Notes under the pieces: generated by a model
Database searches by the model: none
What the model was told of the DNA's origin: nothing
What the model saw: the letters and a program-made list of their open reading frames with translations, nothing else
Part shown: one piece after another, positions 2,824 through 52,786 of the stretch
Layout of the letters: every line of letters begins with the position of its first letter
How positions within the stretch are numbered: the stretch's first letter is position 1
Source: Chryseosolibacter histidinae
GTDB lineage: Bacteria > Bacteroidota > Bacteroidia > Cytophagales > Cyclobacteriaceae
Assembly (NCBI RefSeq): GCF_018598225.1
Contig: NZ_JAHESF010000044.1
Location: 1 to 57,697, forward strand
DNA: 57,697 nt
Direction: 5' to 3'
Translations under genes and position numbers: made by a program

Positions 2824-2963
2824 GTTTAAAGTTTTAAAGTTTAAAGTTTGAAGTTTGAAGTTGGAGTCTGGTGTCGGGTATGGTTTTGGATAGCCATCGA
2901 TCAGCACCCGGTCAGGTAATTTACACCGGACTAACTTTAAACTTTAAATTTTAAACTTGTAAC
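2824..2963. repeat. Intergenic AGTTTAA heptad repeats as an inverted pair
   Basis: The left arm (about 2824-2863) is built from degenerate AGTTTAA/AGTTTGA units and starts directly after the stop codon of the YHS gene. The right arm (about 2932-2963) is built from the reverse complement (AACTTTA-like units) and ends 8 bases before the start of the next gene. The roughly 68 bases between them could form the loop of a long AT-rich hairpin. Confidence 0.85.
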
Positions 2964-2970
2964 TTCGGTC

Positions 2971-3231
2971 ATGATCCACGTAACCATCACAGAAACAGAT
3001 TCAACACCGCTGGGAGATATGGCGGAGCTGACCCTGGATAAGTCGTTTGAGCCAGCCATCGGTATGATCCTCATGGACGAAGATAGCCAGACCTGGGAAG
3101 TGACGGGAACCCTTCACGATGTGAAACGCACCACCGGCGACGATCTCACTTCCAAACGCTGGACCTTTCAATGCCGTCCCGTAAACACCGACAAACCGCT
3201 TCATACCGGCGATTACAAACTCATTCACTAA
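2971..3231 (+). CDS. Hypothetical 86-residue protein
   Basis: MIHVTITETDSTPLGDM opens a small protein without signal peptide or membrane segment. It is rich in beta-type residues and acidic positions, with VTGTLHDVKRTT and WTFQCRPV strands, and may be a small all-beta domain. I do not recognise a family. Codon use looks like that of neighbouring genes, and the frame fills the space between two repeat loci, which supports it as a real gene. Confidence 0.6.
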   Translation: MIHVTITETDSTPLGDMAELTLDKSFEPAIGMILMDEDSQTWEVTGTLHDVKRTTGDDLTSKRWTFQCRPVNTDKPLHTGDYKLIH

Positions 3232-3234
3232 TAG

Positions 3235-3360
3235 ATACGAAGTACGAGAATTAGGTACGAAGTACGAGGTACGAGGTACGTAGCGCCCCGATCGTAGCAA
3301 GTGCGCCAGCACAAATCGTACCTCGTCCCTCGTACTTACTACTTACTCCTTACTCCTTAC
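3235..3360. repeat. GTACGAG heptad repeats as an inverted pair, running into the next gene
   Basis: Left arm about 3235-3281 with GTACGAA/GTACGAG units. Right arm about 3316-3360 with TCGTACCTCG followed by ACTTACT and CTCCTTA units. The CTCCTTA heptads at 3346-3352 and 3353-3359 lie inside the convergent minus-strand gene: read on the minus strand they give its last residues Ser-Lys-Glu and the TAA stop. Confidence 0.85.
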
Positions 3361-3847
3361 TTCTATACATCTCCATCACCTCCCTCCATCCCTTCTTCTC
3401 CGCCATAGCAATTATCACCGTGGTCAGTCGCTTCGATTTAGTCTGTGCCGTCTTTGCGCTTTCGATCCAGCCACTGAAATAATGTTGATGCGACTTGGGC
3501 AGTGTCTTGAAAAAATCATAAGCGCCGGGTTCATCTTTCAGGCAGCTGATGAGGTCGGCAGAAAGTTTCAGGGTGCGCTCATCGAGCTCGGCCTGCACCT
3601 GAACGGTATCGCCTGCAGCTTTTCCGGTGCCCTTTCGCATGGAGGCATTGAAGGGCAGCATGAACTTTCCTTCGCCGGTTGGTAGAAGAGCAGTTTTCTG
3701 GATCTTGTGCCGGTCGAGCATTCCTTTGATGCGGAATGATTTCCGGCAGCCGGGATTCAGCTGTTCCGCGTGACGTTTGCTGAACTCGATGTAGCTCCAT
3801 CCTCCGGGTGCATTAAACCGGTGGATCTTCGCAGAAAACTTGATCAT
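3350..3847 (-). CDS. DUF1905 / YdeI (OmpD-associated)-family protein
   Basis: 165 residues, cytoplasmic (no signal peptide or membrane segment). The first part, roughly residues 1-95, is a DUF1905-like beta domain: FNAPGGWSYIEF, FRIKGMLD, TALLPTGEGKFMLPFNASMRK, GDTVQVQAELDER. The second part, about 105-160, is the YdeI/OmdA C-terminal helical domain with the recognisable SHQHYFSGWIESAKTAQTKSKRL. Members are linked to bacteriocin protection or OmpD association in enterobacteria, but their molecular activity is unknown. A second member lies at 24975-25496. The last residues SKE and the stop codon come from two repeat heptads of the flanking array. Confidence 0.85.
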   Translation of the reverse strand: MIKFSAKIHRFNAPGGWSYIEFSKRHAEQLNPGCRKSFRIKGMLDRHKIQKTALLPTGEGKFMLPFNASMRKGTGKAAGDTVQVQAELDERTLKLSADLISCLKDEPGAYDFFKTLPKSHQHYFSGWIESAKTAQTKSKRLTTVIIAMAEKKGWREVMEMYRSKE

Positions 3848-3912
3848 TTGGCGAAAGTAAGATGTGTTTCACAACAGCGCAAGGTGAAACTGATGCAATG
3901 TCAGCGCTGTGG

Positions 3913-4049
3913 TAGTCCATGGTCCATAGTCGATAGTCCATAGCAAGAGGGTGAACTGTCGCGTGTTGTGTATCAATTCAAATTTGTTCGAAGAATACTT
4001 TCAAAAGTCAACACTGCCCGGCCATGGTCCATGGACTATCGACATGGAC
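3913..4049. repeat. GTCCATA heptad repeats as an inverted pair
   Basis: Left arm about 3913-3943 with units such as TAGTCCA, TGGTCCA and TAGTCGA. Right arm about 4021-4049 contains TGGTCCATGGACTATCGA. The right arm abuts the TAA stop codon (4050-4052) of the minus-strand oxidoreductase. The roughly 77 bases between the arms hold no gene. Confidence 0.8.
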
Positions 4050-5336
4050 TTAAAGTAAATCCCATTTTTTTCGATACTCCCTTCCTAAAAATTCATTCGC
4101 CTCCCTATCACCCCTGAATTTTTCCTTTTTGGTATTCCATTCCAGCTTGCGTCCACCGAGCCGCCATGAGATCAAGGCAAGGTGCATGGGCAAGGTCATG
4201 TCGCGCACGTAGGCCAGGTTCGATTCAGGCTGCCTGCGCGATTTCACAGCGTTCACAAAATTCTGCTGATGGCCCGGAGAGCGTTCCAGTGTCTGAGGCA
4301 CGGAAGAAATATCCTGAACGGTTTCTCCGTTGATGGTGATGGCGCGTGTCTGGTAATCGCAGATGAGTGTTCCTTTGTCGCCTTCAAAGTATGCGCCGAT
4401 GTTGCGCTCGGCTGCGCCAGGCACGTTGGGAGGAAGGGTGGTCCAGTATAATTTCAGGTTTTCAAATTCAAAGTCGGCATCCACCCATTTCGGCGCACTG
4501 GCAACACCATCGGTTTTTTCGCCACGGGCTACCACACTTCTTAAACCTTTCGGCTGAACCGCCCACCACACAACGTCTGCGATATGGCACCAGAAGTCGG
4601 CAAACACGCCGCCGGAGTAGTCGAGAAAGTACCGGTAATTCAGGTGACATTTTTCGGGGAAGTAGTCCGAGTAGGGGGCAGGACCGAGCCACATATCCCA
4701 GTTCAGCGTGGAAGGCGGAGTTTGCGCTTTGGGAAATCCGAGGCCTGGAGAGAAACCGTTCTTCCATAACCGCACGGTGTGTACTTTGCCGATGGCGCCC
4801 GACTGGATGATCTCCACAACGCGGTGATAGTTGTCTCCGGCGTGGATCTGTGTTCCCAGCTGGAAGATCCTGTTATGTTTGCCGAGCTGTTTCAGCATTT
4901 TCTGTCCTTCCTTCACGTCGTATGACAAAGGTTTCTCGCCATACACGTCTTTGCCCGCCTGGAATGCCAGCATGGCGATCTGTGCGTGCCAGTGGTCAGG
5001 CGTTGCAATGGTCACGGCGTCGATGTCCTGGCGGTCGAGCACATGCCTGAAGTCTTCATAACCTTTGGCCTGGCTGTCGGGCTTCAATGTTCTTAAGGTC
5101 TGCAGTGTTTTGTTCAGGTGGTCCTGGTCCACATCGCAGAGCGCCACGATCTCCACATCGGGCAATCCGGCAAACCATTTCATGTGCTGGTTGCCCATGC
5201 CGCCCAGTCCGATGTGCGCTACCCGCAACGTGTCACTGGGTGCAGCCTTCAGTATCATGGATGGCAGAACAGACAGGCCCACGGCGCCGATAGTGCCGAG
5301 CCTGATAAAATCGCGTCTGGAGATGTGTGAGCTCAT
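4050..5336 (-). CDS. Tat-exported Gfo/Idh/MocA family oxidoreductase
   Basis: 428 residues from the ATG at 5336. The frame extends 18 codons upstream, but the shorter start puts the Tat motif SRRDFIRLG at the N-terminus, followed by a hydrophobic stretch ending near LKAAP. The Rossmann domain begins LRVAHIGLGGMGNQH, the NAD(P)-binding glycine pattern. VTIATPDHWHAQIA and DVYGEKPLSYDV hold the family's EKP lysine motif. The C-terminal alpha/beta domain contains the subgroup sequence WDMWLGPAPY and GGVFADFWCHIADVVWW with a conserved His. Members oxidise sugar or polyol hydroxyls with a tightly bound nicotinamide cofactor; Tat export fits folding with cofactor before secretion. The substrate is unknown. 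It is related to the protein at 10142-11479. Confidence 0.92.
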   Translation of the reverse strand: MSSHISRRDFIRLGTIGAVGLSVLPSMILKAAPSDTLRVAHIGLGGMGNQHMKWFAGLPDVEIVALCDVDQDHLNKTLQTLRTLKPDSQAKGYEDFRHVLDRQDIDAVTIATPDHWHAQIAMLAFQAGKDVYGEKPLSYDVKEGQKMLKQLGKHNRIFQLGTQIHAGDNYHRVVEIIQSGAIGKVHTVRLWKNGFSPGLGFPKAQTPPSTLNWDMWLGPAPYSDYFPEKCHLNYRYFLDYSGGVFADFWCHIADVVWWAVQPKGLRSVVARGEKTDGVASAPKWVDADFEFENLKLYWTTLPPNVPGAAERNIGAYFEGDKGTLICDYQTRAITINGETVQDISSVPQTLERSPGHQQNFVNAVKSRRQPESNLAYVRDMTLPMHLALISWRLGGRKLEWNTKKEKFRGDREANEFLGREYRKKWDLL

Positions 5337-5407
5337 ATTGAAGTGTAAGGATTGATCGTACCCTAAACTAATAAAATGTTTTGATCCCACCGTCTGTAAA
5401 ATGGTGG

Positions 5408-5520
5408 TCGGTGACCGGTATCCGGTAATCGGTAACCGGTATTTGGTAACCGGTTTAAGTCGTCTGCACTGTCCATGAATTACTGACTACCGATCACTGA
5501 TCACTGATCACCGATTACTA
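5408..5520. repeat. GGTAACC / GATTACC heptad repeats as an inverted pair
   Basis: Left arm 5408-5455 with units GTGACCG, GTATCCG, GTAATCG, GTAACCG and GTATTTG. Right arm about 5480-5520 with GACTACC, GATCACT, GATCACC and GATTACT. They lie in the 372-base gene-free gap upstream of the GH20 gene. Confidence 0.85.
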
Positions 5521-5566
5521 TTTAAGGTGTGTGTAATGTGTGTGTATTCTATGCTGATAGTCTCAC

Positions 5567-5682
5567 TAATCCTGTTAATCCTGTTAATCCTTTAATCCTG
5601 TTAATCTTTTAATCCTGGTTTAATCCTGGTTTAATCCTGTCAATCCTGTAAATCTTTTAATCCTGGTTTAATCCTGTTAATA
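5567..5682. repeat. AATCCTG tandem array upstream of the GH20 gene
   Basis: About twelve degenerate copies of AATCCTGTT, AATCCTTT and AATCCTGGTTT, with unit length varying from 8 to 11 bases. The array ends 26 bases before the GH20 start codon and overlaps a promoter-like sequence. There is no complementary arm at this locus. Confidence 0.9.
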
Positions 5683-5685: not shown

Positions 5686-5708
5686 GGTATTCAACCTTTA
5701 CTGTAATC

Positions 5709-7693: not shown

Positions 7694-7759
7694 AGCCGGG
7701 AGGCTTTTAAATATATACATACACATAACCCAAAAAGAAGCATTTAAGGAAAGTATTTT

Positions 7760-9425: not shown

Positions 9426-9842
9426 ATGGCCACGCAGCGATCCATAACAGCATCCCTTCTCGGCAACGAGCTCGTCTTTACAACTTCGCGCAGCAGCGGC
9501 CCGGGCGGACAGAATGTTAACAAAGTGGAGACGAAAGTGACCGTCAAGTTCGATGTGATGAAGTCGCTGGTCTTAACGCCGGAAGAGCGTGAAGTGATCC
9601 TGAAAAAGCTGCATTCCAAGATCACCACCGAAGGCGTGCTCGTGATCTCGAGCCAGGACAGCCGCTCGCAGCTTCAGAACAAGGAAGCCGTGATCGCAAA
9701 GCTGGAAGCAGCGCTCGCCAAAGCCTTCGAAAAAAAGAAAGCCCGCAAGGCTACCAAGCCCTCCAAATCCGCCACCCAGGACCGCATCAGAAAAAAGAAA
9801 CAGCAGGGCGAGAAGAAGAAGTGGAGGCAGAGACCGGAGTAA
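9426..9842 (+). CDS. arfB: Alternative ribosome-rescue factor ArfB (peptidyl-tRNA hydrolase)
   Basis: 138 residues, the usual ArfB/YaeJ length. The catalytic GGQ motif (residues 27-29) is in SRSSGPGGQNVNKVETKV, the sequence shared with class I release factors and ArfB. A basic tail, about 95-138 (KKKARKATKPSKSATQDRIRKKK), matches the C-terminal extension that enters the empty mRNA channel of stalled ribosomes. The codon-recognition domain of true release factors is absent, which separates it from PrfA/PrfB. It hydrolyses peptidyl-tRNA on ribosomes stalled without a stop codon. It is a single gene; the stop codon is followed within two bases by a repeat array. Confidence 0.95.
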   Translation: MATQRSITASLLGNELVFTTSRSSGPGGQNVNKVETKVTVKFDVMKSLVLTPEEREVILKKLHSKITTEGVLVISSQDSRSQLQNKEAVIAKLEAALAKAFEKKKARKATKPSKSATQDRIRKKKQQGEKKKWRQRPE

Positions 9843-9844
9843 AA

Positions 9845-10053
9845 AGTTTAAAGTTTAAGGTTTAAAGTTTGAAGTTTAAAGTTGCCGGTTGCCAGTTACC
9901 GGTTGCCGGTTTCGGCCTGTGTAAAATGAGGAGGTCAAGCTTCGATTCATGGGCGCGTCTCAAATCTCATGTCTCACATCTCCCCTTGAAACACAGAACG
10001 TAAAGGCGTGCCGCTCACGAAACCGGCAACTGGCAACCGGTAACTGGCAACCA
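9845..10053. repeat. Mosaic heptad array (AGTTTAA then GGTTGCC) with a complementary arm
   Basis: The left arm 9845-9907 is nine in-phase heptads: AGTTTAA, AGTTTAA, GGTTTAA, AGTTTGA, AGTTTAA, AGTTGCC, GGTTGCC, AGTTACC, GGTTGCC. The sequence family changes from AGTTTAA to GGTTGCC without loss of phase. The right arm (10019-10053) is complementary to the GGTTGCC half only: CCGGCAACTGGCAACC and so on. No gene lies between the arms. Confidence 0.9.
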
Positions 10054-10141: not shown

Positions 10142-11479
10142 ATGAGGAGAAGAAATTTTATCAAAGGTACTGGCGCCGCGCTGGCAGGAAGTATCTTACT
10201 TGGTGAACGTGCTTTTTCAGCGGCCAAAGTATCGCAGGCCGACAAGATCAATATCGGCGTGATCGGCTGCAACGGCATGGGATGGTCTAACACCAACTCG
10301 CTGCTGAAAATGCAGGATGTAGACCTGATCGGCATCTGTGATGTTGATAACAACGTGATCCGGAAACGCCTTGCGGATTACGCCAAGCTTCGGACCAACG
10401 TGCCCAAGACCTATACAGATTACCGTGAGCTGCTGAACGATAAGGACATCGATGCGGTAGTGATCGGCACACCGGACCACTGGCATTGTAAGATCATGGT
10501 AGATGCCGTGAAGGCGGGCAAACATGTTTACGTGGAGAAGCCGATAGCCAACAGCATCGAGGAGTGCAACATCATGGTGGCGGCCCAGGAAAAAACGGGC
10601 AAGGTTGTGCAGGCGGGCCAGTGGCAGCGCAGCGGACCGCATTACAGGAAGGCGATCGAGATCGTGCGGTCAGGAGTGCTTGGCAAGATCAGGCTGGTGA
10701 AGGTGTGGGCGTATCAGGGATGGATGAACCCTGTGCCGGTGCTTCAGGATTCTCCCGTGCCCGAAGGTGTAAATTATGATATGTGGCTGGGACCTGCTCC
10801 CAAGCGAAACTTTAACGCCAACCGGTTTCATTTTAATTTCCGGTGGTTTTGGGATTATGCCGGCGGACTGATGACAGATTGGGGCGTGCATGAGATCGAT
10901 ATTGCCTTGTATGCGATGCAGGCCTCGGCACCCGTCTCCGTGATGGCTGCCGGAGGAAAGCTGGCCTACCCTGACGATGCCTCCGAAACGCCTGACACGC
11001 TGCAGGCAATATTTCAATACGAGAACTTCAGCATGCTGTGGGAGCACGCCACGGGCATCGACAACGGTCCCTATAACCGCCGCGAGGGCATTGCCTTCAT
11101 CGGCAACAACGGAACCCTGGTGGTTGACAGGGGCGGATATGAAGTGATCGTAGAGCGTGTGGCCAAAGGATATTCAGGCTGGGGAGATCCCAAAATGCAG
11201 CCCATAGAAGCCTACCGCAAACCCGATGACCTGAACTACCTAGACCTGCACACGCAGAACTTCATCGAGGCTGTGAAAAAGAATGATCAGTCGCTGCTGA
11301 ACACACCTATCCGCTCGGGTAGTGTTGCCGCCATCAATGCGCAGATGGGCAACATCGCATACAAAACGGGCAGCAAGGTTTTCTGGAACGCGAAGGCTGG
11401 AAATTTCGGCAGCAATAAAGAAGCAAATAAGCTGATCAAATCCCAGTATCACAACGGATGGGAGCTACCGTCGGTTTGA
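10142..11479 (+). CDS. Tat-exported Gfo/Idh/MocA family oxidoreductase
   Basis: 445 residues. MRRRNFIKGTGAALAGSILLG is a Tat-type signal (RRRNFIK). The Rossmann domain begins INIGVIGCNGMGWSN; VVIGTPDHWHCKIM and HVYVEKPIANSIEE carry the family's EKP motif. The C-terminal domain has NYDMWLGPAPKRNF and GGLMTDWGVHEIDIALYAM. It is a homologue of the protein at 4050-5336 (shared DHWH, MWLGPAP and similar length) but clearly diverged, so it is probably an old paralogue with a different sugar-type substrate. The cofactor is expected to be NAD(P), bound before export. The stop codon TGA lies within heptad GGTTTGA (11473-11479), in phase with the following repeats. Confidence 0.92.
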   Translation: MRRRNFIKGTGAALAGSILLGERAFSAAKVSQADKINIGVIGCNGMGWSNTNSLLKMQDVDLIGICDVDNNVIRKRLADYAKLRTNVPKTYTDYRELLNDKDIDAVVIGTPDHWHCKIMVDAVKAGKHVYVEKPIANSIEECNIMVAAQEKTGKVVQAGQWQRSGPHYRKAIEIVRSGVLGKIRLVKVWAYQGWMNPVPVLQDSPVPEGVNYDMWLGPAPKRNFNANRFHFNFRWFWDYAGGLMTDWGVHEIDIALYAMQASAPVSVMAAGGKLAYPDDASETPDTLQAIFQYENFSMLWEHATGIDNGPYNRREGIAFIGNNGTLVVDRGGYEVIVERVAKGYSGWGDPKMQPIEAYRKPDDLNYLDLHTQNFIEAVKKNDQSLLNTPIRSGSVAAINAQMGNIAYKTGSKVFWNAKAGNFGSNKEANKLIKSQYHNGWELPSV

Positions 11480-11562
11480 GGTTTAAAGTTTGAAGTTGCA
11501 AGTTTGAAGTTGAAAGTCTGGAGTTTCAAAGTTGAGCGGTTTGGTTGCCAGTTGCCAGTTGG
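11473..11562. repeat. Mosaic AGTTTGA / GTTGCCA heptad array overlapping a stop codon
   Basis: GGTTTGA (11473-11479, containing the oxidoreductase TGA stop), GGTTTAA, AGTTTGA, AGTTGCA, AGTTTGA and AGTTGAA follow each other in phase. After a diverged part, GGTTGCC, AGTTGCC and AGTTGGA follow. There is no complementary arm nearby. Confidence 0.85.
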
Positions 11563-11620: not shown

Positions 11621-11678
11621 CTCAGATTAGCGCAGATTTTTTGAAGACTCTGCAAAAATCAGCGTAATCTGCGGGAAA
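11621..11678. repeat. CAGATTA-type inverted repeat upstream of the YwbE-family gene
   Basis: CAGATTAGCGCAGATTTTTT (from 11623) and AAAAATCAGCGTAATCTG are near-perfect complements around an 11-base loop GAAGACTCTGC. The hairpin ends about 10 bases before the start codon and would lie in the leader. A diverged fragment (GCCGCAGATTTTTTGAA) occurs at about 14703. Confidence 0.75.
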
Positions 11679-11686
11679 TTGCATTT

Positions 11687-14899: not shown

Positions 14900-15041
14900 T
14901 GTGGATTGACCAGGATTATGGGATTTTACTGGATTTGCAGGATTGATAGTTATATTGATAGTATAAATTTCTGACAGACCGAAGGTCTTTTTTATATTAC
15001 AATCCTGTTAATCCTATAATCCCGTTAATCTTGGTCAATAA
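14900..15041. repeat. AATCCTG-family inverted pair; right arm overlaps the start of a small gene
   Basis: The left arm (about 14904-14945: ATTGACCAGGATTATGGG, GGATTTGCAGGATTG) and the right arm (about 14999-15040: CAATCCTGTTAATCC, CCCGTTAATCTTGGTCAAT) are reverse complements with mismatches. The TTG proposed as start of the next gene (15031-15033) is part of the right arm. Confidence 0.8.
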
Positions 15042-15190: not shown

Positions 15191-15351
15191 GACAGGATTT
15201 ACTGGATTTGCAGAATTGACAGGATGGTCGTGATAACATATTCAGGAAATCAGAAGTATCGTTTGTCTTTTATCCTGCTAATCTTATAATCCTGTTAATC
15301 CTGTAATCCTGTTAATCCTGGTCATCCTGTTAATCCTGATCCTGATCCTGT
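15191..15351. repeat. AATCCTG inverted array running into the rhodanese gene
   Basis: Left arm about 15191-15226 (GACAGGATTTACTGGATTTG). Right arm about 15270-15351 with some ten units of TAATCCTG, TCATCCTG and GATCCTG. The right arm continues past the stop codon (15322-15324) into the minus-strand rhodanese gene; read on the minus strand it encodes the C-terminal Gly-Ser-Gly-Ser-Gly-Leu-Thr-Gly and the TGA stop. Confidence 0.9.
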
Positions 15352-16282: not shown

Positions 16283-17272
16283 ATGTCGCGCATCACCCTT
16301 GATAAGCTTCTAGGCATCGATTACCCCATGATCGTTGCACCGATGTTCCTGATCTCCAATACCAAAATGGTGAAGGCAGCGTTGGCCAGTGGCGTGAGCG
16401 CAGCTTTCCCGGCACTGAATTACAGAACCGACCAGGAGCTGCGTGCGGCCATCCGCGAGATCAAACAGTTCTCTTCAAAACCTTTCGGTGTAAACCTCAT
16501 CGTGAATCGCTCGAACCCGAAGTACAAAGGTCAGCTTGAGACGTTGGTGGAGCTCGGTGTCGATTACATTATCACTTCACTGGGCAATCCGAAAGAAACG
16601 ATCGAAAAATGCCGGCCCAAGGGTATCAAGGTGTTTTGTGATGTGGTGGACCTCCAGTATGCGCGCAAAGTTGAGGAGCTGGGAGCAGATGCTGTGATCG
16701 CTGTCAACAACAGGGCCGGAGGACATGCCGGTAACCTTGCGCCGCACGAGCTGGTGAAACTGTTAACGGAGAATTGCAGCATCCCCGTTATTTCCGCCGG
16801 TGGTATTGCCAAAGGTGAGGACCTGAAACAGGTGATAGACTGGGGTGCGGCAGGAGCATCCGTAGGCACGATCTTCATTGCGTGCGAAGAATCAGATGTT
16901 TCGCCTGAATACAAACAGGCCATGATCGATTACGGTGAAAAAGACATTGTTCGCACCACCAAATTATCCGGCTCACCGCTCACGGTCATCAACACGCCAT
17001 ACGTGCAGCAGCTGGGTACCAAAGCGAATCTGCTGGAGTGGATCCTCAACAATAACAAGACGTTGAAAAAATATGCCAAGATGCTCATCGCCCTGCGCGG
17101 TATGAAGGCTGTTGAAAAAGCCGCCTTCGGTGCCACCTATAAAACAGTCTGGTGTGCCGGCCCCGCCATCGAGCACGTCACGCGCATTCGAAAAATGGAA
17201 GACATCATCGGAACCCTGATCGCGGAATATAAAGCTGCGCAGCTCACCCAAGTCGCCAACTTTAAACTTTAA
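16283..17272 (+). CDS. FMN-dependent nitronate monooxygenase
   Basis: 329 residues from the ATG at 16283; an in-frame TTG lies two codons upstream. This is a TIM barrel of the nitronate monooxygenase / 2-nitropropane dioxygenase family: DYPMIVAPMFLISN at the start, DAVIAVNNRAGGHAGN (flavin site with the conserved His), PVISAGGIAKGEDLKQVIDWGAAGASVGTIF (phosphate-binding end). It oxidises alkyl nitronates such as propionate-3-nitronate to protect against these toxins. The promoter region is shared with the divergent rhodanese gene. The last residues (Asn-Phe-Lys-Leu) and the TAA come from in-phase repeat heptads (17258-17271). Confidence 0.92.
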   Translation: MSRITLDKLLGIDYPMIVAPMFLISNTKMVKAALASGVSAAFPALNYRTDQELRAAIREIKQFSSKPFGVNLIVNRSNPKYKGQLETLVELGVDYIITSLGNPKETIEKCRPKGIKVFCDVVDLQYARKVEELGADAVIAVNNRAGGHAGNLAPHELVKLLTENCSIPVISAGGIAKGEDLKQVIDWGAAGASVGTIFIACEESDVSPEYKQAMIDYGEKDIVRTTKLSGSPLTVINTPYVQQLGTKANLLEWILNNNKTLKKYAKMLIALRGMKAVEKAAFGATYKTVWCAGPAIEHVTRIRKMEDIIGTLIAEYKAAQLTQVANFKL

Positions 17273-17299
17273 ACTTCAAACTTCAAACTTCAAACTTTC
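17258..17299. repeat. Six perfect-phase AACTTTA / AACTTCA heptads bridging two convergent genes
   Basis: AACTTTA, AACTTTA, AACTTCA, AACTTCA, AACTTCA, AACTTTC occupy 17258-17299 without a break. The plus-strand stop TAA (17270-17272) and the minus-strand stop TGA (17290-17292, read as TCA) both lie inside the array. The intergenic space is thus entirely repeat. Confidence 0.95.
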
Positions 17300-23003: not shown

Positions 23004-23062
23004 AAGGCCAGGTTAGGTAACATCGGATGATCGTGAAATCTCCCTAAATGTACACCAATAAA

Positions 23063-23160
23063 TGGTAATCGGTAAACGGTATTCAGTAACCGGTTTGATC
23101 ACATAACATGACTCATCACCGATTACCGATTACCGATTACTGATTACTGATTATCGATTA
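23063..23160. repeat. GATTACC heptad repeats as an inverted pair, overlapping the surE stop
   Basis: Left arm 23063-23094 (GGTAATC, GGTAAAC, GGTATTC, AGTAACC). Right arm about 23114-23160 (CATCACC, GATTACC, GATTACC, GATTACT, GATTACT, GATTATC, GATTA). The last heptad overlaps the surE stop codon (23158-23160 on the minus strand). Confidence 0.9.
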
Positions 23161-25590: not shown

Positions 25591-25659
25591 TCTCCTTACT
25601 CCTTAATTCTTAATCCTTACTCCTCCTCCTGGCTCCTGACTCCTGGCTCCTGACTTCTT
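25591..25659. repeat. CTCCTTA / CTCCTGG heptad array
   Basis: CTCCTTA, CTCCTTA, ATTCTTA, ATCCTTA, then CTCCTGG, CTCCTGA, CTCCTGG, CTCCTGA, CTTCTTA. It ends three bases before the stop codon of the convergent OmpA gene. There is no complementary arm. Confidence 0.9.
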
Positions 25660-25661: not shown

Positions 25662-26774
25662 TCAATCCTTCAAAACCTCGATCTCAATTCTATCATTCAG
25701 CCTCGTAGCATTCGGATGACTTTCATCCACCAGCATTTCAGTTCCTCCCCATCCGTAGATCTTGACGCGGTCGGCGCTGATGTTATGTTGTGCGAGATAA
25801 GAACGAACGGCTTGTGCCCGCATGTTGGTTAGTGTTTTTGCGCTCGCATCGGTATTAACTACATTCTGGATATTAAAATAGTCGTTGCTTTCTCCCACGG
25901 TAGCGATCTTCCGGCTCTTCTTGCCATTGCAGTGTGCGTGCACTTTGATCACATAGTTGGGGTTCTCCAGCATAAGGTTCACCAGCTCGTCAAGATCATT
26001 TTTTGAGGGCGGTTGCATGATTACCGCATCCGGATAAAAAGCTACGTTGTACATCACTGAAACATCGCCTTTGCCGAGTCTTTCCAGTGTATAGGGAATA
26101 ACCCACGCGCCCTCGTTGTCCATGTAAACTCCGCTGGTATTGGAGGGATTGCTGTAGTCAACCAGCTTTTCAACTTCCTTGTAGCCAAATACACCGCATA
26201 CCAATGCCAAAGGCTCGCTCGACGGAGGATTCAGCAGATCGACATTGACCCCGGCGGTATAACTTCCCATATCACGACCTTTCGTGAGGTCGATCTGGTG
26301 AACCTGCGCAGGGAAAGCTTCACCGTTGTATTTGGTGATGGCGAATTTAAAGAACTTGCCTTTAGGTTTCACCGGCGCGCTTCCGGTAGCAGACGAAGCG
26401 GCGCTGGAAAGACCTGAGCTCGCCGTTACCACGCCGGGCGCTGGCGGACCTGCAACACCGGCCACGCCATCGAGCGTTTGCTGTTGCAGCTGTGCTCCGG
26501 TTTCAATTTCCTGCTGTACTTTCAGTGAGCGTGCAAGAAGCATATCCTTGCTGGAAGTTTTCATCACATAAAAGTGCATCATGTTACCACCGTTATACAT
26601 GGTATACGCGGTATCCAAAGACTTGCCGGGAAGGTAGCTTGTAAATTCACGGGCGTCGTCTTTGTCAGTGGCGAAGGCTCCAATAACCAGATAATAGTTT
26701 TGGCAAAACGCTGGCGTTAGTAATACGCTAATTACAACTGTAGCGAAAGCAGTTTTCAGTACACTCCATTTCAT
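25662..26774 (-). CDS. OmpA-family protein with an N-terminal SPOR-like region
   Basis: 370 residues. MKWSVLKTAFATVVISVLLTPAFCQ is a Sec signal peptide. NYYLVIGAFATDKDDAREFTSYLPGK resembles a SPOR-type glycan-binding strand-helix unit. A low-complexity Ala/Gly/Pro/Ser linker (about 105-140) leads to a beta-rich middle domain (about 140-250). The C-terminal OmpA-like peptidoglycan-binding domain (about 245-370) has VAFYPDAVIMQPPSKNDLDELVNLMLENPNYVIKVHAHCNG, MRAQAVRSYLAQHNISADRVKIYGWGGTEML and RLNDRIEIEVLK. An insertion of about 20 residues between HCNG and the MRAQAV helix is unusual. The protein probably links the outer membrane to peptidoglycan. Confidence 0.87.
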   Translation of the reverse strand: MKWSVLKTAFATVVISVLLTPAFCQNYYLVIGAFATDKDDAREFTSYLPGKSLDTAYTMYNGGNMMHFYVMKTSSKDMLLARSLKVQQEIETGAQLQQQTLDGVAGVAGPPAPGVVTASSGLSSAASSATGSAPVKPKGKFFKFAITKYNGEAFPAQVHQIDLTKGRDMGSYTAGVNVDLLNPPSSEPLALVCGVFGYKEVEKLVDYSNPSNTSGVYMDNEGAWVIPYTLERLGKGDVSVMYNVAFYPDAVIMQPPSKNDLDELVNLMLENPNYVIKVHAHCNGKKSRKIATVGESNDYFNIQNVVNTDASAKTLTNMRAQAVRSYLAQHNISADRVKIYGWGGTEMLVDESHPNATRLNDRIEIEVLKD

Positions 26775-28656: not shown

Positions 28657-28750
28657 AGATCGTCGTCAGACCACTGCGCAGGGCCCGCGCGTGAGTCAGT
28701 GGTCCGACGACTGTACACCCATACCGTGGACCGTCGTCCGTGGACTGTCG
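28657..28750. repeat. Inverted repeat with GTCGTC / GTGGTCC units
   Basis: CGTCGTCAGACCACTG (28661-28676) is the near complement of CAGTGGTCCGACGACTG (28697-28713). It is followed by CCGTGGACCGTCGTCCGTGG, which repeats the GTGGACxGTC theme. It fills most of the 302-base gap between the two KGG genes. Confidence 0.75.
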
Positions 28751-28829
28751 AATCTCTGTAGATGAATGTCCGCAGGAACTGTTTTTTGTTTCCGGTGCAG
28801 GCGGTGGCATAATAATTATTCTTAACAAT

Positions 28830-32070: not shown

Positions 32071-32075
32071 TGCGG

Positions 32076-32166
32076 AGGTACGAAGTACGAAATACGAGGT
32101 ACGATAGCTCGATCTGCATTTGCCGTATTTCGTACCTCGTATCTTGTATCTCGTACTTTGTATTTA
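32076..32166. repeat. GTACGAA / TACGAAG heptad repeats as an inverted pair
   Basis: Left arm about 32076-32105 (GTACGAA, GTACGAA, ATACGAG, GTACGAT). Right arm about 32123-32165 with TCGTACCTCG, TATCTTG, TATCTCG, TACTTTG. It lies between the permease stop codon and hrpB, whose start codon follows 12 bases after the right arm. It belongs to the same family as 3235-3360. Confidence 0.88.
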
Positions 32167-34682: not shown

Positions 34683-34801
34683 GGAGTTGCCAGTTACCAG
34701 TTTCAGGGGTGTTGCGTCACAGATTGTGTCACGTTAGAAAGTAAATCAATAATGATGATTTACGCGTCACTAACCGGCCATCCGGCAACCGGCAACTGGC
34801 G
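34683..34801. repeat. GTTGCCA-family inverted pair
   Basis: Left arm AGTTGCC, AGTTACC, AGTTTCA (34685-34705) right after the hrpB stop codon. Right arm ATCCGGCAACCGGCAACTGG (about 34780-34799). The intervening 70 bases contain no gene. Confidence 0.8.
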
Positions 34802-34807
34802 ACCTAT

Positions 34808-35485: not shown

Positions 35486-35634
35486 AGTTTAAAGTTTGAA
35501 GTTTAAAATTGGTTGCCGGTTACCGGTTGCCAGTTGCCAGTTAAGGCGCGGTTACTGTATTTTCCTGATGGAGTCCGTCTCTTTTTAATATTGATGTACC
35601 CTCCTTACTCCTGGCTCCTTACTTCTGACTCCTA
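35486..35634. repeat. Mosaic AGTTTAA / GGTTGCC heptads and a CTCCTTA array
   Basis: 35486-35544: AGTTTAA, AGTTTGA, AGTTTAA, then after a four-base slip GGTTGCC, GGTTACC, GGTTGCC, AGTTGCC, AGTTAAG. 35601-35634: CTCCTTA, CTCCTGG, CTCCTTA, CTTCTGA, CTCCTAG. The two arms are not complementary here. The second arm ends immediately before the helicase stop codon (35636). Confidence 0.88.
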
Positions 35635-37703: not shown

Positions 37704-39278
37704 ATGAGAAGTGTACTGCTCTGCCTTTTTTTTATGGCTGCCTCACAGCTGTTTGCCCAGGACTACGACCTGCTGATCCTGAACGGAAAGCTGGTGGACG
37801 GAACCGGTAACTCATGGCGCTATGCAGACGTCGCTGTAAAAGATGGCAAGATCGTCAGGATCGGTAACCTGAAGCAGGCCCGCGCAGCACGCATCATCGA
37901 CGCAAAAGATCACGTGGTGGCGCCGGGATTTGTTGACGTTCATACCCACATCGAGGGCAACGACCTCAGGGCTCCCATGGCCCCCAACTTTATCATGGAC
38001 GGTGTTACCACAGTAGTCACCGGCAACTGCGGCGGCTCGAACACCGACATCGGCAACTATGCTTTCAAGCTCGACAGTGTAAAAACCTCCATCAACATTG
38101 CCACCCTGATCGGCCACAACAGTGTGCGCAGAGCGGTGATGGGCGACAGTCAGCGCGATCCCTCACCGGAAGAGCAGAAGAAAATGGAAGACCTCGTGGA
38201 AGAGGCGATGAAGAACGGTGCGGTAGGACTCTCTACCGGACTGATCTACGTTCCCGGAACCTACTCCAAAACACCTGAAGTGGTGGGCCTTGCCCGTGCA
38301 GCGTCGCGTCATGGTGGTGTTTACGCTTCACACATCCGTAGCGAAGGAGATAACGTGACCGAGGCCATCGAAGAAGCGATCAACATCGGTCGTCAAGCCA
38401 GCATCCCCGTAGAGATCTCTCACTTCAAGGTGACTTACAAACCCAACTGGGGCCGCTCGGTGAGCACGCTCAGCCAGGTGGAGAATGCGCGAAAAGAAGG
38501 CATTGAAGTTACCATAGACCAGTATCCTTACGTGGCCAGCAGCACAACGCTGAACACCGTTGTACCGAGCTGGGTGTTTTCAGGTGGACGCGACTCCGTG
38601 CTCTACAGGCTGAAGGACCAGCAGATCCGGAAGAAGATCAAGGACCAGATGGTGACCTCGCTGAAAAGAAAACAGCTGAAAGATTTCGGGTACGCGGTTG
38701 TGGCACGATATGGAGCCGATACAACGCTGAATGGCAAAAATATTTCTGAGATCAACAAGCTGAAAGGAAGAAAAGCAAAACCCGACCAGGAATCAGAGAC
38801 CATCCTGGAGATGGTGGAGAACGGAAGCGCTCAGATGGTGTTCTTCAGCATGAACGAAGACGACCTGCGCAGGATCATGCAATACCCTTTTAATATGTTC
38901 GCCTCCGATGCCGGCATTGCCCGGTTTGGCTCAGGTGTTCCGCACCCGCGTGCGTACGGTACCAATTCAAAAGTGCTCGGCACGTACGTAAGGGATCTGA
39001 AGATCCTGTCACTGGAAGAGGCCATCAGGAGAATGACCTCGCTGCCCGCACAAAAATTCAACCTGAACGACCGCGGACTCGTCAGACCCGGCATGGCTGC
39101 CGATATCGTGGTGTTCAATCCGCTTACAGTGGGTGACAAAGCCACCTTCAGCCAACCCCACGCCTACGCCACCGGCTTCGAATATGTGATCGTCAATGGC
39201 AAAGTAACCTCGGATAGAGGTACCCACACGGGAGAACGGGGTGGGGTTTTTCTTACCGGGCCAGGAACGAAGCAGTAG
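37704..39278 (+). CDS. Exported D-aminoacylase/N-acyl-D-amino-acid deacylase-like amidohydrolase
   Basis: 524 residues from the ATG at 37704, which opens the signal peptide MRSVLLCLFFMAASQLFAQ; the frame is 53 codons longer upstream but without a signal. The metal-dependent amidohydrolase fold shows YDLLILNGKLVDGTGNSW (N-terminal strand), HVVAPGFVDVHTHIEGND with the metal-binding HTH pair, GVTTVVTGNCGGSN, and the C-terminal MTSLPAQKFNLNDRGLVRPGMAADIVVFNP. It hydrolyses N-acyl-D-amino acids or related imidates, probably in the periplasm; substrate unverified. It is followed by repeats. Confidence 0.92.
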   Translation: MRSVLLCLFFMAASQLFAQDYDLLILNGKLVDGTGNSWRYADVAVKDGKIVRIGNLKQARAARIIDAKDHVVAPGFVDVHTHIEGNDLRAPMAPNFIMDGVTTVVTGNCGGSNTDIGNYAFKLDSVKTSINIATLIGHNSVRRAVMGDSQRDPSPEEQKKMEDLVEEAMKNGAVGLSTGLIYVPGTYSKTPEVVGLARAASRHGGVYASHIRSEGDNVTEAIEEAINIGRQASIPVEISHFKVTYKPNWGRSVSTLSQVENARKEGIEVTIDQYPYVASSTTLNTVVPSWVFSGGRDSVLYRLKDQQIRKKIKDQMVTSLKRKQLKDFGYAVVARYGADTTLNGKNISEINKLKGRKAKPDQESETILEMVENGSAQMVFFSMNEDDLRRIMQYPFNMFASDAGIARFGSGVPHPRAYGTNSKVLGTYVRDLKILSLEEAIRRMTSLPAQKFNLNDRGLVRPGMAADIVVFNPLTVGDKATFSQPHAYATGFEYVIVNGKVTSDRGTHTGERGGVFLTGPGTKQ

Positions 39279-39281: not shown

Positions 39282-39494
39282 TGTTGCCAGTTACCAGTTG
39301 CCAGGTGGCCGGTTAGAGCGGGTACACTTTCACCGTCAGGGCTTCAAATCGGGGAACCTGATTCATTGATACTTGGTTCATCGTTCCTTGAATCGGAGCA
39401 AAGTACTTATATCTAACACAGAATTGAACCGGCAACAGGCAACCGGCAACCAAGACTCCCCCAACTTTTAACTTCTAACTTCTAACTTTAAACT
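39282..39494. repeat. GTTGCCA / AACTTCT repeats as a partly inverted pair
   Basis: Left arm 39282-39313 (TGTTGCC, AGTTACC, AGTTGCC, AGGTGGCCGG). Right part 39428-39494: ACCGGCA, ACAGGCA, ACCGGCA, then AACTTTT, AACTTCT, AACTTCT, AACTTTA. The first half of the right part complements the left arm. The right end lies 8 bases before the patatin stop codon. The 114 bases between contain no gene. Confidence 0.85.
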
Positions 39495-44960: not shown

Positions 44961-45164
44961 ATAGTAGACAATGGCACTGGGCTTGAAACCGGTATCCTGA
45001 GCGGTGAAAAGAGGGAAGGTATTGAGTGAGCGAAGGATCCCGTGATCGTTACTGCTTATCTAATACGGAGGTGCTGCTTTAAAAGTGCACTTCGTTAAGC
45101 GGGGATTCTTCGCGTCCCGCATGCCAACGCACATGCCTTGCTCAGAATATCGGTCGCTGGGGGG

Positions 45165-45216
45165 ATTACTATTGCCTACTGCCCGATGACCATCGGGTTT
45201 GCCTACTGCCTACTGA
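45165..45216. repeat. GCCTACT heptad repeat before the dnaA stop
   Basis: TTGCCTACTG, a small palindrome CCCGATGACCATCGGG, then GCCTACT, GCCTACT. It ends directly before the dnaA stop codon (45218). The rest of the gap 44961-45164 contains a weak hairpin near 45100 (GCGGGGA, TTCTTCGCG, TCCCGC) and nothing else recognised. Confidence 0.75.
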
Positions 45217-50074: not shown

Positions 50075-50149
50075 GCCGCCAAAAATCCGCACGACATAAG
50101 AATTTACCTTTCACAGGTTAAATGTTTCATTCAAAAAGGTAACTGTACT

Positions 50150-51310
50150 TTGGTTTCTACAAAAAAAAGGATCGCCATACTGGGATCCACGGGCTCTATT
50201 GGCACACAGGCGTTGGAAGTTATTGCAGCGCATGCCCATGCTTTTGAGGTGGAGGTGCTCACGGCCCAGCACAATGCAAAGCTCCTGATAGAGCAGGCGA
50301 TCAGGTATCAGCCCAACGCCGTCGTTATTGGCAACGAGCAATTGTATGGCGAAGTGAAGGAGGCACTCTCGGGTCAGGATATCAAAGTGTACGCAGGAGA
50401 AAATGCGCTGGCCTCCGTGGTGCAGATGGATACCATAGACCTTGTGCTGACCGCGCTGGTGGGATATGCCGGACTGAAACCCACGATCAAAGCGATAGAA
50501 GCGGGAAAAAATATCGCCCTGGCCAACAAGGAGACCCTGGTGGTGGCCGGTGAGCTCGTCACGCAACTGGCGCGCGAAAAAGGGGTGAACATCTATCCCA
50601 TCGACTCCGAGCATTCGGCTATTTTCCAGTGCATGGTGGGCGAATTCCACAACAAGATCGAAAAGATCATCCTGACGGCTTCCGGCGGCCCTTTTTTGGG
50701 CAGAAAGAAGAACGAGATCCAATCTGTAAGAAAAGAACAGGCGCTGAAACATCCCAACTGGTCAATGGGCGCGAAAATCACCATCGATTCAGCTTCTCTC
50801 ATGAATAAAGGGCTGGAAGTGATCGAAGCCAAGTGGCTGTTCGGGCTCAAACCGGGCCAGGTAGAGGTAGTGGTTCACCCGCAGTCGATCATTCACTCCC
50901 TGGTGCAGTTCGAGGATGGCTCCATTAAGGCGCAACTCGGCCTTCCGGATATGCGTTTACCCATTCAGTTCGCATTAACATATCCCGACCGATATCCATC
51001 GGCCTTTCCGAGGTTCGATTTTGCGCAATATCCCACGCTAACCTTCGGAAAGCCTGATACCGAAACTTTTCGTAATCTTGCGCTGGCGTACGAGGCATTG
51101 CACCGGGGTGGAAATATGCCCTGCATCCTGAATGCCGCCAACGAAGTTGCGGTGGCCGAATTTTTGAAGGATAGGGTGGGTTTTTTGGAAATGTCTGATA
51201 TTGTGGAACAATGCCTGGCCAAAATCCATTATATCAAAAGTCCTTCGTATGAAGATTATGTTAATACTGACAAGGAAACCCGGCTAAAAGCGATAGAATT
51301 AGTAAAGTAG
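50150..51310 (+). CDS. dxr: 1-deoxy-D-xylulose 5-phosphate reductoisomerase, TTG start
   Basis: 386 residues. No in-frame ATG exists upstream; the TTG at 50150 is preceded by AAAAAGGT at 8 to 15 bases and places KKRIAILGSTGSIGTQ, the NADPH-binding loop, correctly at the N-terminus. ALANKETLVVAGELV, PIDSEHSAIFQCM and ASGGPF are further family motifs (metal and substrate sites), and MNKGLEVIEAKWLF and VVVHPQSIIHSLVQF follow. It catalyses the first committed step of the MEP pathway to isoprenoids. The rseP gene begins 28 bases downstream, the usual dxr-rseP pair. Confidence 0.96.
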   Translation: MVSTKKRIAILGSTGSIGTQALEVIAAHAHAFEVEVLTAQHNAKLLIEQAIRYQPNAVVIGNEQLYGEVKEALSGQDIKVYAGENALASVVQMDTIDLVLTALVGYAGLKPTIKAIEAGKNIALANKETLVVAGELVTQLAREKGVNIYPIDSEHSAIFQCMVGEFHNKIEKIILTASGGPFLGRKKNEIQSVRKEQALKHPNWSMGAKITIDSASLMNKGLEVIEAKWLFGLKPGQVEVVVHPQSIIHSLVQFEDGSIKAQLGLPDMRLPIQFALTYPDRYPSAFPRFDFAQYPTLTFGKPDTETFRNLALAYEALHRGGNMPCILNAANEVAVAEFLKDRVGFLEMSDIVEQCLAKIHYIKSPSYEDYVNTDKETRLKAIELVK

Positions 51311-51338
51311 AGAAACTCAATTTTTATTAAGATTTACA

Positions 51339-52673
51339 ATGGATTACATGATTATGCTCGCTCAGCTCCTGCTGAGTCTTTCCTTTCTGGTAGCCGTGCA
51401 TGAGCTGGGGCACCTCATTGCAGCCAAATATTTCGGCATGCGGGTAGAACAGTTTTCCATCGGTTTTCCCCCAAAAATATGGTCATTTAAAAAAGGCGAG
51501 ACAGAGTACGCCATCAGTGCGATACCGCTGGGAGGGTATGTGAAGATCTCCGGTATGATCGACGAATCGCTCGATACCGAGACCATGAAACTGCCGCCGC
51601 AGCCATGGGAGTTCCGCTCGAAACCAGCCTGGCAGCGGTTGATCGTGATGCTGGGAGGTATCACTGTTAACGTAGTGGTAGGTGTGCTCATCTTCATCGG
51701 TCTCACATTCGCTTTTGGCGATACCTACTGGCTGAAGGATGAGATCAACAAGCATGGCGGATTGATGGTAGGTCCTGTGGGTGAAAGCATCGGCCTGAAA
51801 ACAGGTGACAAGATCGTGAAGATCAACGGTAAGGATTTTCAATACTTCCAGGATATCATCAAACCTGAAACACTGCTGGGCTCCAACGCCTATTATACCG
51901 TTGAACGCGATGGCAAGCTCATCGACATCAACATTCCCCCCGACTTCATTCAAAAATTCAATAGGAAAGAGAACGCGATCAACTTTGTGTTCTACCGTTT
52001 CCCTTCACTGGTAGGAAGAGTTCAGAAAGAGTCAGTGGCCGATAAAGTAGGACTGCAACCTAACGACCTGGTGGTGGAGATCAACGGACAGGAGATCAAA
52101 TATCACGACCAGGTTTCACCTACACTGAAGGCCTTCACCGGAGACACACTTACATTTGCCGTGATCCGTGACGGAAAGAGGATCGATTTCAAAGAATACT
52201 TCAAGGGACAGACGGCCCTTGGATTTTATGCCGGGGAATCAAAAGATTATTTGAAGGATGCGGAAGTGAGTATCAAGTACGGATTTATAGAGTCAATTCC
52301 GCTCGGTACTAAAAAGGCTTTTACAACACTCAGAACCCAGATCATCGCCTTTGGAAAAGTGATCTCGGGCGTGCTCTCACCTCAGGAGTCTTTATCGGGG
52401 CCGCTCGGCATAGCGCAGGCGTTCGGCGCGGAGTGGGACTGGGAAAGGTTCTGGCAGCTCACCGGCGTGCTTTCACTCGTGCTCGCATTTATGAACCTGC
52501 TGCCCATCCCCGCACTCGATGGTGGCCACGTGATGTTCCTCTCTTACGAGATCATCTCACGCAGAAAACCTTCTGACAAATTTCTGGAAACAGCACAGAA
52601 AGTTGGAATGGTGTTCCTGTTGGCACTGATGGTGTTCATCTTCGCCAACGATATTATCAAAGCATTCTCGTAA
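51339..52673 (+). CDS. rseP: Site-2 intramembrane zinc metalloprotease RseP
   Basis: 444 residues. The zinc motif H21-E-x-x-H25 is in AVHELGHLIAAKYFG in the first membrane helix. Two PDZ domains (about 125-195 and 215-290) start with GPVGESIGLKTGDKIVKINGK and SVADKVGLQPNDLVVEINGQ. The last part has membrane helices and NLLPIPALDGGHVMF with the third zinc ligand Asp394. It cleaves membrane-spanning anti-sigma factors and leftover signal peptides. It forms an operon with dxr. Confidence 0.96.
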   Translation: MDYMIMLAQLLLSLSFLVAVHELGHLIAAKYFGMRVEQFSIGFPPKIWSFKKGETEYAISAIPLGGYVKISGMIDESLDTETMKLPPQPWEFRSKPAWQRLIVMLGGITVNVVVGVLIFIGLTFAFGDTYWLKDEINKHGGLMVGPVGESIGLKTGDKIVKINGKDFQYFQDIIKPETLLGSNAYYTVERDGKLIDINIPPDFIQKFNRKENAINFVFYRFPSLVGRVQKESVADKVGLQPNDLVVEINGQEIKYHDQVSPTLKAFTGDTLTFAVIRDGKRIDFKEYFKGQTALGFYAGESKDYLKDAEVSIKYGFIESIPLGTKKAFTTLRTQIIAFGKVISGVLSPQESLSGPLGIAQAFGAEWDWERFWQLTGVLSLVLAFMNLLPIPALDGGHVMFLSYEIISRRKPSDKFLETAQKVGMVFLLALMVFIFANDIIKAFS

Positions 52674-52675
52674 AT

Positions 52676-52786
52676 AGTCCACAGTTCCACGCAAACCCTT
52701 TGAGGGCTTTTCAGAAGCAGGTGTGCTATTTATTTAGCAGGCTTTTGAATAATCCTCAAAGGGTTTTTAGTTGTAGACTGTGGACT
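52676..52786. terminator. Nested inverted repeat between rseP and the PorE-like gene
   Basis: Outer arms AGTCCACAG and CTGTGGACT, inner arms AAACCCTTTGAGG (52693-52705) and CCTCAAAGGGTTT (52754-52766). The inner 13-base arms are perfect complements; further partial pairing GCTTTT/AAAAGC is possible inside. The element fills the space between two convergent genes and may terminate both, although the loop is long (48 bases) and no long T run follows; it may also belong to the family of intergenic inverted pairs described here. Confidence 0.7.

What the first reader, a model, noticed from the sequence alone, without database searches (positions are those of the whole stretch)
2824..52786. Many different intergenic repeats share one 7-base period and often form inverted pairs
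In more than a dozen intergenic spaces I see degenerate tandem repeats with unrelated sequences but the same 7-base period: AGTTTAA, GGTTGCC, GTACGAG, GATTACC, GTCCATA, CTCCTTA, GCCTACT. In most loci a left arm of G/T-type units is followed 20-120 bases later by its reverse complement. This is similar in period to the heptanucleotide STRR elements of heterocystous cyanobacteria, but here several sequence families coexist in one 58-kb window. The shared period across families points to one copying or slippage mechanism rather than independent expansions.
Basis: partly seen in the sequence, partly recalled or inferred. Interest (0 to 1): 0.8.

Follow-up and report, generated by a model that had tools for sequence, protein, structure and literature searches.

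The report
Seven-base arms of mobile elements
The seven-base repeats between genes appear to be the paired ends of a small mobile element whose only gene, when present, encodes an S23 'four-helix-bundle' protein, which may explain similar unexplained repeats in several other bacterial groups.

Summary
In 1.26 Mb of this 8.04-Mb Cytophagales genome, period-7 arrays number 232 in gaps against 0.5 per shuffle, and 82 of 126 adjacent array pairs are inward-facing inverted pairs of one word. Slippage alone does not fit: D arms are mostly four heptads, neighbouring units are not homogenised, and arrays abut stop codons. The key is a gene. PF05635 (S23p / 23S-rRNA-IVP, four-helix bundle, 4HB) genes sit between inverted heptad arms: six of six full-length copies here (five by scan, one by eye), 23 of 37 in 13 Cytophagales genomes, 14 of 30 phylum-wide, 13 of 16 plasmid loci, against 5 of 304 and 1 of 42 control genes. 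Arm words track 4HB protein similarity, even between Bacteroidota and cyanobacteria. So the arrays are best read as ends of S23p elements, mostly geneless copies, akin to 23S rRNA intervening sequences; the Coxiella one carries tandem heptamers and a 28-bp end stem (PMC4990558). Cyanobacterial STRRs look like the same thing, Xanthomonas GGGAATC repeats probably. Mobility and word recognition are inferred.

The parts
2823..2879 (+). Left arm, word A (GTTTAAA), starting at the stop codon of the + gene ending at 2823
2933..2965 (-). Right arm, word A; pairs with 2823-2879
3255..3280 (+). Left arm, word C (GTACGAA)
3316..3364 (-). Right array called E; it begins with C-type units (TCGTACC) and runs into E (ACTCCTT)
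3915..3943 (+). Left arm, word D (GTCCATA), four heptads
4022..4043 (-). Right arm, word D; pairs with 3915-3943
5403..5448 (+). Left arm, word F (GTAATCG)
5481..5518 (-). Right arm, word F; pairs with 5403-5448
9838..9911 (+). Left array: A units followed by B units (TRF splits it at 9843-9883 and 9881-9911)
10021..10051 (-). Right arm, word B (GTTGCCG); faces the B part of 9838-9911
11473..11561 (+). Left arms A (11473-11517) then B (11544-11561) directly after the + gene ending at 11479
17258..17297 (-). Single A arm overlapping the ends of two convergent genes
23059..23160 (-). Right-type arrays B (23059-23088) and F (23107-23160)
25592..25658 (-). ACTCCTT-type array left unassigned by the script, upstream-most at the stop of the - gene 25662-26774
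28723..28756 (-). Single D arm
32075..32104 (+). Left arm, word C, just after the + gene ending at 32070
32124..32165 (-). Right arm, word C; the orthologous gap in relative G315 is 61 bp without arrays
34685..34702 (+). Left arm, word B, just after the + gene ending at 34682
34779..34803 (-). Right arm, word B; pairs with 34685-34702
35486..35542 (+). Left arms A (35486-35510) and B (35511-35542), abutting
35601..35633 (-). Right arm, word E (ACTCCTT); the whole gap is 9 bp without arrays in G315
39283..39313 (+). Left arm, word B, just after the + gene ending at 39278
39427..39451 (-). Right arm, word B; pairs with 39283-39313
39463..39494 (-). Right arm, word A, outside the B pair
45200..45215 (-). 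Short right array, word G (GTAGGCA), at the 3' end of dnaA; relatives have other heptad words at that site

Best explanation
The heptad arrays are the terminal inverted arms of a family of small mobile (selfish) elements. A gene-bearing copy is: left arm of about four heptads of a family-specific word, a roughly 350-450 bp gene for a PF05635/TIGR02436 four-helix-bundle protein (S23p, 23S-rRNA-IVP), right arm carrying the reverse complement. The arrays of this window are geneless copies: two arms around some 10-200 bp, or single leftover arms. Arm word and protein travel together, and the simplest working model is that the protein, which forms a homopentameric ring in its solved relatives, binds the heptads of its own arms and so marks element ends for copying; the cutting and joining would be done by host enzymes, since the protein has no known catalytic domain. 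Arms end up against stop codons because insertion there is tolerated or targeted. Shown here: the bracketing of 4HB genes by heptad arms, the covariation of word and protein, some geneless copies with homologous spacers, and array-free or shorter orthologous gaps. Inferred: active mobility, protein-arm binding, host enzymes.
For: 4HB genes bracketed by complementary heptad arms: 23 of 37 loci from 13 Cytophagales genomes, chosen partly because repeats were known there; 14 of 30 top-scoring loci from a phylum-wide draw, with 0 at lags 5, 6 and 9 and 5 at lag 8; 13 of 16 plasmid loci. Controls: 5 of 304 ordinary genes of 80-180 aa, none with inward GT..AC polarity, and 1 of 42 in two Nostoc plasmid stretches. 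With looser gene starts controls stay at 5 of 303 (a sixth is itself a 4HB gene) and the sets at 23 of 37 and 14 of 30. In this genome five of six full-length 4HB genes are bracketed by scan, the sixth (L296) by eye, with words A, E, an AGCT type, H and two D subtypes; the gene fragment L299 has F on one side. Word-protein covariation: 35 loci, 48 pairs above 45% identity, mean word similarity 0.663 against 0.495 (sd 0.017), 0 of 5000 permutations reach it; after dropping near-identical loci, 31 loci, 31 pairs, 0.618 against 0.490, 0 of 5000, also within phyla. The E word goes with 57-62% identical proteins in this genome and in four Nostocales loci. Orthologous site: L070, L075, L077 and L094 hold heptad arms around a 4HB gene where L063 has 5 bp. 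Some spacers are homologous between copies (B 11%, D 2.4% of pairs above the 99th percentile of shuffles).
Against: 14 of 37, 16 of 30 and 3 of 16 4HB loci are not bracketed by the criterion, though some of these show arms by eye (L296, L335, L338, L355). Words B, C, G and I (116 of 326 arrays) have no 4HB gene with that word among the 7 found here. No target-site duplication was found and no fresh insertion between close strains was seen, since the nearest relatives are only about 76-93% identical in protein. Most spacers are not detectably homologous. Own-locus arms are not more complementary than arms of other loci in A, B, C and F, only in D, so hairpin pairing is not visibly conserved. 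The first Mantel test was weak (rho 0.158, p 0.035). Words differ at one orthologous site between relatives, so a site may be hit repeatedly. Binding was not tested.
Confidence: 0.8

Rival explanations
1. Independent microsatellites made by polymerase slippage with a natural 7-nt step, as proposed for bacterial heptanucleotide repeats; inverted pairs arise by strand switching.
For: Period 7 is shared by unrelated words and species. Slippage with a 7-nt step is the explanation reported in PMC4679880 and PMC4692102 (passages). Long purer arrays exist in G353 and Pseudanabaena, and unit number varies at one orthologous site (L077 vs L070/L075).
Against: Preferred arm length in D (55 of 80 at 27-30 bp), neighbours less alike than shuffled in B, C and D, fixed polarity per word, association with 4HB genes and word-protein covariation. 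Slippage may still tune unit number.
Confidence: 0.08
2. Functional 3'-end hairpins (transcription terminators, RNase III or stability elements) kept by selection at gene ends.
For: 123 of 196 arrays on the stop side lie within 5 bp of the stop codon, against 10% expected; inverted pairs can fold.
Against: No TTTT excess after arms (7 and 6 of 82 against 6.7% background) and canonical terminators in 6 of 108 array gaps against 18 of 178 others; arms of one locus do not pair better than random arms in A, B, C and F; arrays are absent from 3 of 4 comparable gaps in G315. Secondary use by the host is not excluded.
Confidence: 0.08
3. REP/BIME-like elements mobilised by a RAYT (IS200-like Y1) transposase.
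For: Dispersed extragenic palindromes; four Y1_Tnp genes exist in this genome, one (L172) with a C-word pair nearby.
Against: Y1 counts do not follow A-word counts across 148 genomes; three of four Y1 loci here show no heptad array within about 1.5 kb; REP-type hairpin heads were not seen.
Confidence: 0.02
4. The 4HB gene merely likes to be carried near such repeats, for example because both survive in tolerated gaps, and plays no part in their spread.
For: Both lie in gaps next to stop codons; 60% of arrays only share a word with a resident 4HB gene and 36% do not.
Against: Bracketing is rare for other small genes in the same genomes (5 of 304), and each protein type keeps its own word across genera and phyla.
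Confidence: 0.1

Closest known systems
23S rRNA intervening sequences (IVS) with an S23p ORF, e.g. Coxiella burnetii IVS (PMC4990558: abstract, introduction, one results section and passages read)
   Same: Element of about 430 nt, complementary ends forming a 28-bp stem, S23p/PF05635 ORF inside, tandem heptamers (three GACAGAT plus a degenerate unit) just upstream of the ORF; described there as selfish, function of S23p unknown.
   Different: IVSs sit in rRNA helices and are cut out by RNase III; the elements here sit between protein genes, occur in hundreds to thousands of arrays, mostly without the gene, with many words. Whether the Coxiella stem itself is built of the heptamers I could not check.
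Cyanobacterial heptanucleotide repeats (STRR; the name is recalled)
   Same: Intergenic tandem heptamers, several words per genome; in cyanobacterial plasmids here they bracket S23p genes as inverted arms (GGGAACA, GGGAGTA, GTCAGGA and others).
   Different: Only plasmid copies were tested here, not the chromosomal STRRs of the literature.
Xanthomonas GGGAATC and Nostoc GGGGA(C/T)T repeats (PMC4692102: one section and passages read)
   Same: Mostly four units; 70 and 75 convergent inverted pairs; mostly intergenic, close to the upstream ORF (average 28 nt). X. campestris also has a solved S23p relative, XCC0516.
   Different: Read there as G-quadruplexes; no link to S23p in the passages seen; the flanks of XCC0516 were not available to me.
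TAACTGA repeats of Beggiatoaceae, Cyanobacteria and some Bacteroidetes (PMC4679880: abstract, one section and passages read)
   Same: Intergenic heptamer arrays with fixed orientation to genes, patchy distribution.
   Different: Mostly direct repeats upstream of start codons, one word; no S23p link reported or tested.
MITEs, REP/BIME and eukaryotic foldback elements (recalled)
   Same: Short, dispersed, inverted ends, geneless copies outnumber gene-bearing ones; foldback ends also consist of tandem subrepeats.
   Different: No transposase gene and no target-site duplication found here.
Avd/bAvd proteins of diversity-generating retroelements
   Same: Same four-helix superfamily: L294 and L296 match PF22296 and the NCBIfam Avd model (both below or at the curated cut-offs).
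   Different: No reverse transcriptase match in this genome or in three other repeat-bearing genomes.

Membership tests
23S rRNA IVS element (strict sense) | Lies inside a 16S/23S rRNA gene | tested here: not met
   Arrays lie between protein genes; Rfam scan of 12 4HB loci found no rRNA, only a SAM riboswitch in L298.
23S rRNA IVS element (strict sense) | S23p / PF05635 ORF inside | tested here: met
   Met by gene-bearing copies; not by the geneless copies of the window (no 4HB match in 1.26 Mb including the window).
23S rRNA IVS element (strict sense) | Complementary ends that can form a stem | tested here: met
   Inverted heptad arms at word level; unit-level pairing is not better than chance except in D.
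23S rRNA IVS element (strict sense) | Excision from RNA by RNase III | not testable with these tools
   Needs RNA data.
Heptanucleotide STRR | Tandem degenerate heptamers in gaps, several words | tested here: met
Slippage microsatellite | Neighbouring units homogenised, length decaying without a preferred value | tested here: not met
   Neighbours less alike than shuffled in B, C, D and as shuffled in A, E; D 55 of 80 at 27-30 bp. A is broad, so the test is weaker there.
REP/RAYT system | Association with a Y1 (RAYT) transposase | tested here: not met
   one word only was used for the comparison of genomes.
MITE | Terminal inverted repeats | tested here: met
MITE | Target-site duplication | tested here: not met
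   20-nt flanks no more alike than permuted flanks in A, B, C, D.
MITE | A transposase-bearing partner with the same ends | tested here: inconclusive
   A gene-bearing partner with the same arms exists, but its 4HB protein is no known transposase.
Intrinsic terminator | Hairpin followed by a T run | tested here: not met
DGR / retroelement | Reverse transcriptase in the genome | tested here: not met
   No RVT_1 match in G000, G324, G255, G076; 9 of 13 genomes have one.

The most novel reading that the evidence does not exclude
A class of mobile element without an enzyme of its own: its sole protein is a pentameric four-helix ring that reads its ends as a row of heptads, one unit per subunit on a single strand (as TRAP reads its triplets; analogy recalled), so that the 7-nt step is fixed by the ring and the word by the protein. 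Protein and word evolve as a lock-and-key pair. Cyanobacterial STRRs, Xanthomonas GGGAATC repeats, TAACTGA repeats and rRNA intervening sequences would all be traces of this one class.
Probability: 0.3. Interest if true: 0.95.

Novelty: new variant of a known kind. Interest (0 to 1): 0.85.

Why it matters
It gives a cause to one of the commonest unexplained repeat types in bacteria and a natural context to a widespread protein family of unknown function (153 of 198 Bacteroidota genomes above the cut-off). It turns 'why seven?' into a binding question that can be tested with one purified protein and a few oligonucleotides, and it links repeat lore from cyanobacteria, xanthomonads and rRNA intervening sequences. 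In ten searches of the paper library I saw no paper that joins intergenic heptad repeats with S23p genes; the library lacks most subscription journals, and the Coxiella paper does note heptamers inside an rRNA IVS.

Tried and rejected
Slippage alone, RAYT/REP, terminators and a reverse-transcriptase route were each tested (31, 35, 52, 53; 111; 81) and rejected as main explanation. Target-site duplications and longer inverted repeats outside the arms were sought and not found; inside the arms only D came near (p 0.055). A conserved core common to families B and D, suggested by consensus sequences, was not borne out in A, C, E and F by a motif count, so I make no claim of it. An Rfam scan of the window gave nothing. 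A viral-contig scan for a 24-base A array gave 6 matches that I did not follow. Fine-scale empty-site analysis between close strains was not possible: no strain closer than genus level was held. A genus of relatives around G353 gave no usable orthologous locus. The first control used gene starts from my own gene caller while the 4HB loci used the start nearest the domain; one search repeated it with equal treatment and changed little.

Rows dropped: 4 of 41 loci gave no 4HB ORF (L299, L309, L317, L326) and were left out, L077 and L094 were dropped as orthologues of L070, L333, L340, L341 and L342 as near-identical to others kept. Of 76 matches, 30 became loci; of the long list, 30 top-scoring ones; of the plasmid hits I chose 16.
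Full report
1. What is there. The window belongs to an unnamed Cytophagales genome of 8,041,252 bases whose nearest relatives by DnaA (91-93%) include Fulvivirgaceae JP3-4, Chryseosolibacter and Ohtaekwangia. I sampled 1,257,697 bases (plus the window), called genes with a script of my own and obtained 740 gaps. Match frequency at lag 7 is 0.291 in gaps, 0.2566 in shuffles and 0.2427 in coding DNA. Lag-7 segments of score 12 or more number 232, against 0.5 in shuffles; lag 14 gives 148, all other lags from 4 to 16 at most 15. With a threshold of 9 there are 326 arrays in 200 of 740 gaps, which would extrapolate to about 2,080 per genome.

2. Anatomy. Nine word families were named by me. Each word has a fixed polarity: GT-type units lie in the left half of the gap (82 against 14), their reverse complements in the right half (83 against 18), with 129 of 326 arrays undecided. 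Of 126 adjacent array pairs 82 are same-family and inward-facing; 81 of 200 array-bearing gaps hold such a pair. D arms are 27-30 bp, four heptads, in 55 of 80; B and E have modes at 31-32 (25 of 65) and 33-34 (12 of 27); A is broad. Of 196 arrays whose nearer gene end is a stop codon, 123 lie within 5 bp of it (63%, null 10%); for start codons 18 of 130 (14%, null 8%).

3. What it is not. Neighbouring heptads are identical less often than in within-array shuffles in D, B and C and as often in A and E, which is not what homogenising slippage gives. Arms of the same locus are not more complementary than arms of different loci in A, B, C and F; only D shows an excess (p 0.008), partly because its GTCCAC and GTCCAT subtypes stay together. 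T runs and canonical terminators are not enriched. Y1/RAYT counts do not follow A-word counts. No target-site duplication was found.

4. Relatives. Four other stretches, from the same genus (G315), the same family (G353) and other families (G128, G177), show period-7 arrays in inverted pairs with other words; G004, G009 and G076 show a few, G049 none in 80 kb. Among 17 syntenic gaps shared with G315, 3 hold arrays only in this genome, 1 in both with a different word, 13 in neither.

5. The gene. Comparing orthologous gaps in named relatives showed heptad arms in L070, L075, L077 and L094 around an ORF of 116 codons, where L063 has only 5 bp between the flanking genes. The ORF is a PF05635 / TIGR02436 four-helix-bundle protein, the S23p family of rRNA intervening sequences, whose solved relatives are 2gsc (XCC0516) and 2rld; PMC4990558 reports the former as a homopentameric ring. 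This genome has seven matches. Five of six full-length genes are bracketed by arms in the scan, the sixth (word H) by eye, and a fragment has word F on one side. Their words are A, E, an AGCT type, H and two D subtypes, so families with 194 of 326 arrays have a resident gene (F only a fragment), while B, C, G and I (116 arrays) have none and 16 arrays are unassigned.

6. How general. Bracketing by complementary heptad arms: 23 of 37 loci in 13 Cytophagales genomes, 14 of 30 top-scoring loci of a 198-genome phylum draw, 13 of 16 plasmid loci, all 13 cyanobacterial. Controls: 5 of 304 genes of 80-180 aa, none with inward GT..AC polarity, which 24 of 37 bracketed 4HB loci have (3 outward, 10 undecided); 1 of 42 Nostoc plasmid genes, itself the neighbour of a 4HB gene. 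Equal treatment of gene starts left this unchanged. Lags 5, 6 and 9 gave none of 30, lag 8 gave 5.

7. Word and protein. In 35 bracketed loci, pairs above 45% protein identity have a mean word similarity of 0.663 against 0.495 in permutations, 0 of 5000; with near-identical loci removed 0.618 against 0.490, 0 of 5000, also when permuted within phyla. A weaker first Mantel test on 24 loci gave p 0.035. The E word AGGAGTC accompanies 4HB proteins 57-62% identical between this genome and four Nostocales loci, and L325 of G353.

8. Reading. I take the arrays as ends of S23p elements, most of them geneless. Known rRNA intervening sequences share the ORF and the complementary ends, and in Coxiella also tandem heptamers beside a 28-bp stem (PMC4990558, passages and section read). 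GGGAATC repeats of Xanthomonas, mostly four units and often in convergent pairs (PMC4692102, section read), fit the anatomy. That the protein binds the heptads, that a ring fixes the step of seven, and that elements move today are inferences. A reverse transcriptase is not needed in the same genome: four repeat-bearing genomes, this one included, have no RVT_1 match.

Noticed in passing
window 44980-45210; other copies: A second kind of intergenic repeat, palindromic and about 180-200 bp (GTCATCCTGAG ... GCGAAGGATCC | GGATCCTTCGC ... CTCAGGATGACGG), dispersed in the genome and in several cases enclosed by D, H or G arms.
   Followed up: partly
window 5567-5681, 15001-15030, 15272-15350: Arrays of AATCCTGTT/AATCCTGGT with a 9/17-base period, another repeat type.
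   Followed up: no
window about 11625-11685: A short inverted repeat around TCAGCGTAATCTGCGG / GATTAGCGCAGATT.
   Followed up: no
L334, L335, L338, L343: In cyanobacterial plasmids 4HB genes sit within operons: between cas6 and cas4 (twice), between cas10 and a Cmr3-family gene, and between two ribonucleotide reductase genes.
   Followed up: no
G315 stretches: A smaller excess at lag 8 (16 segments against 46 at lag 7), so other periods may exist in some genomes; 5 of 30 4HB loci also pair at lag 8.
   Followed up: no
D arms, e.g. window 3915-3943: In B and D arms heptads three apart are often identical (0.46 and 0.44), a 21-base period that equals two helical turns; D arms usually hold one GTCGAC-type unit, seldom at the same place in both arms.
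   Followed up: partly
L298 240-379: A SAM riboswitch near one gene-bearing element.
   Followed up: no
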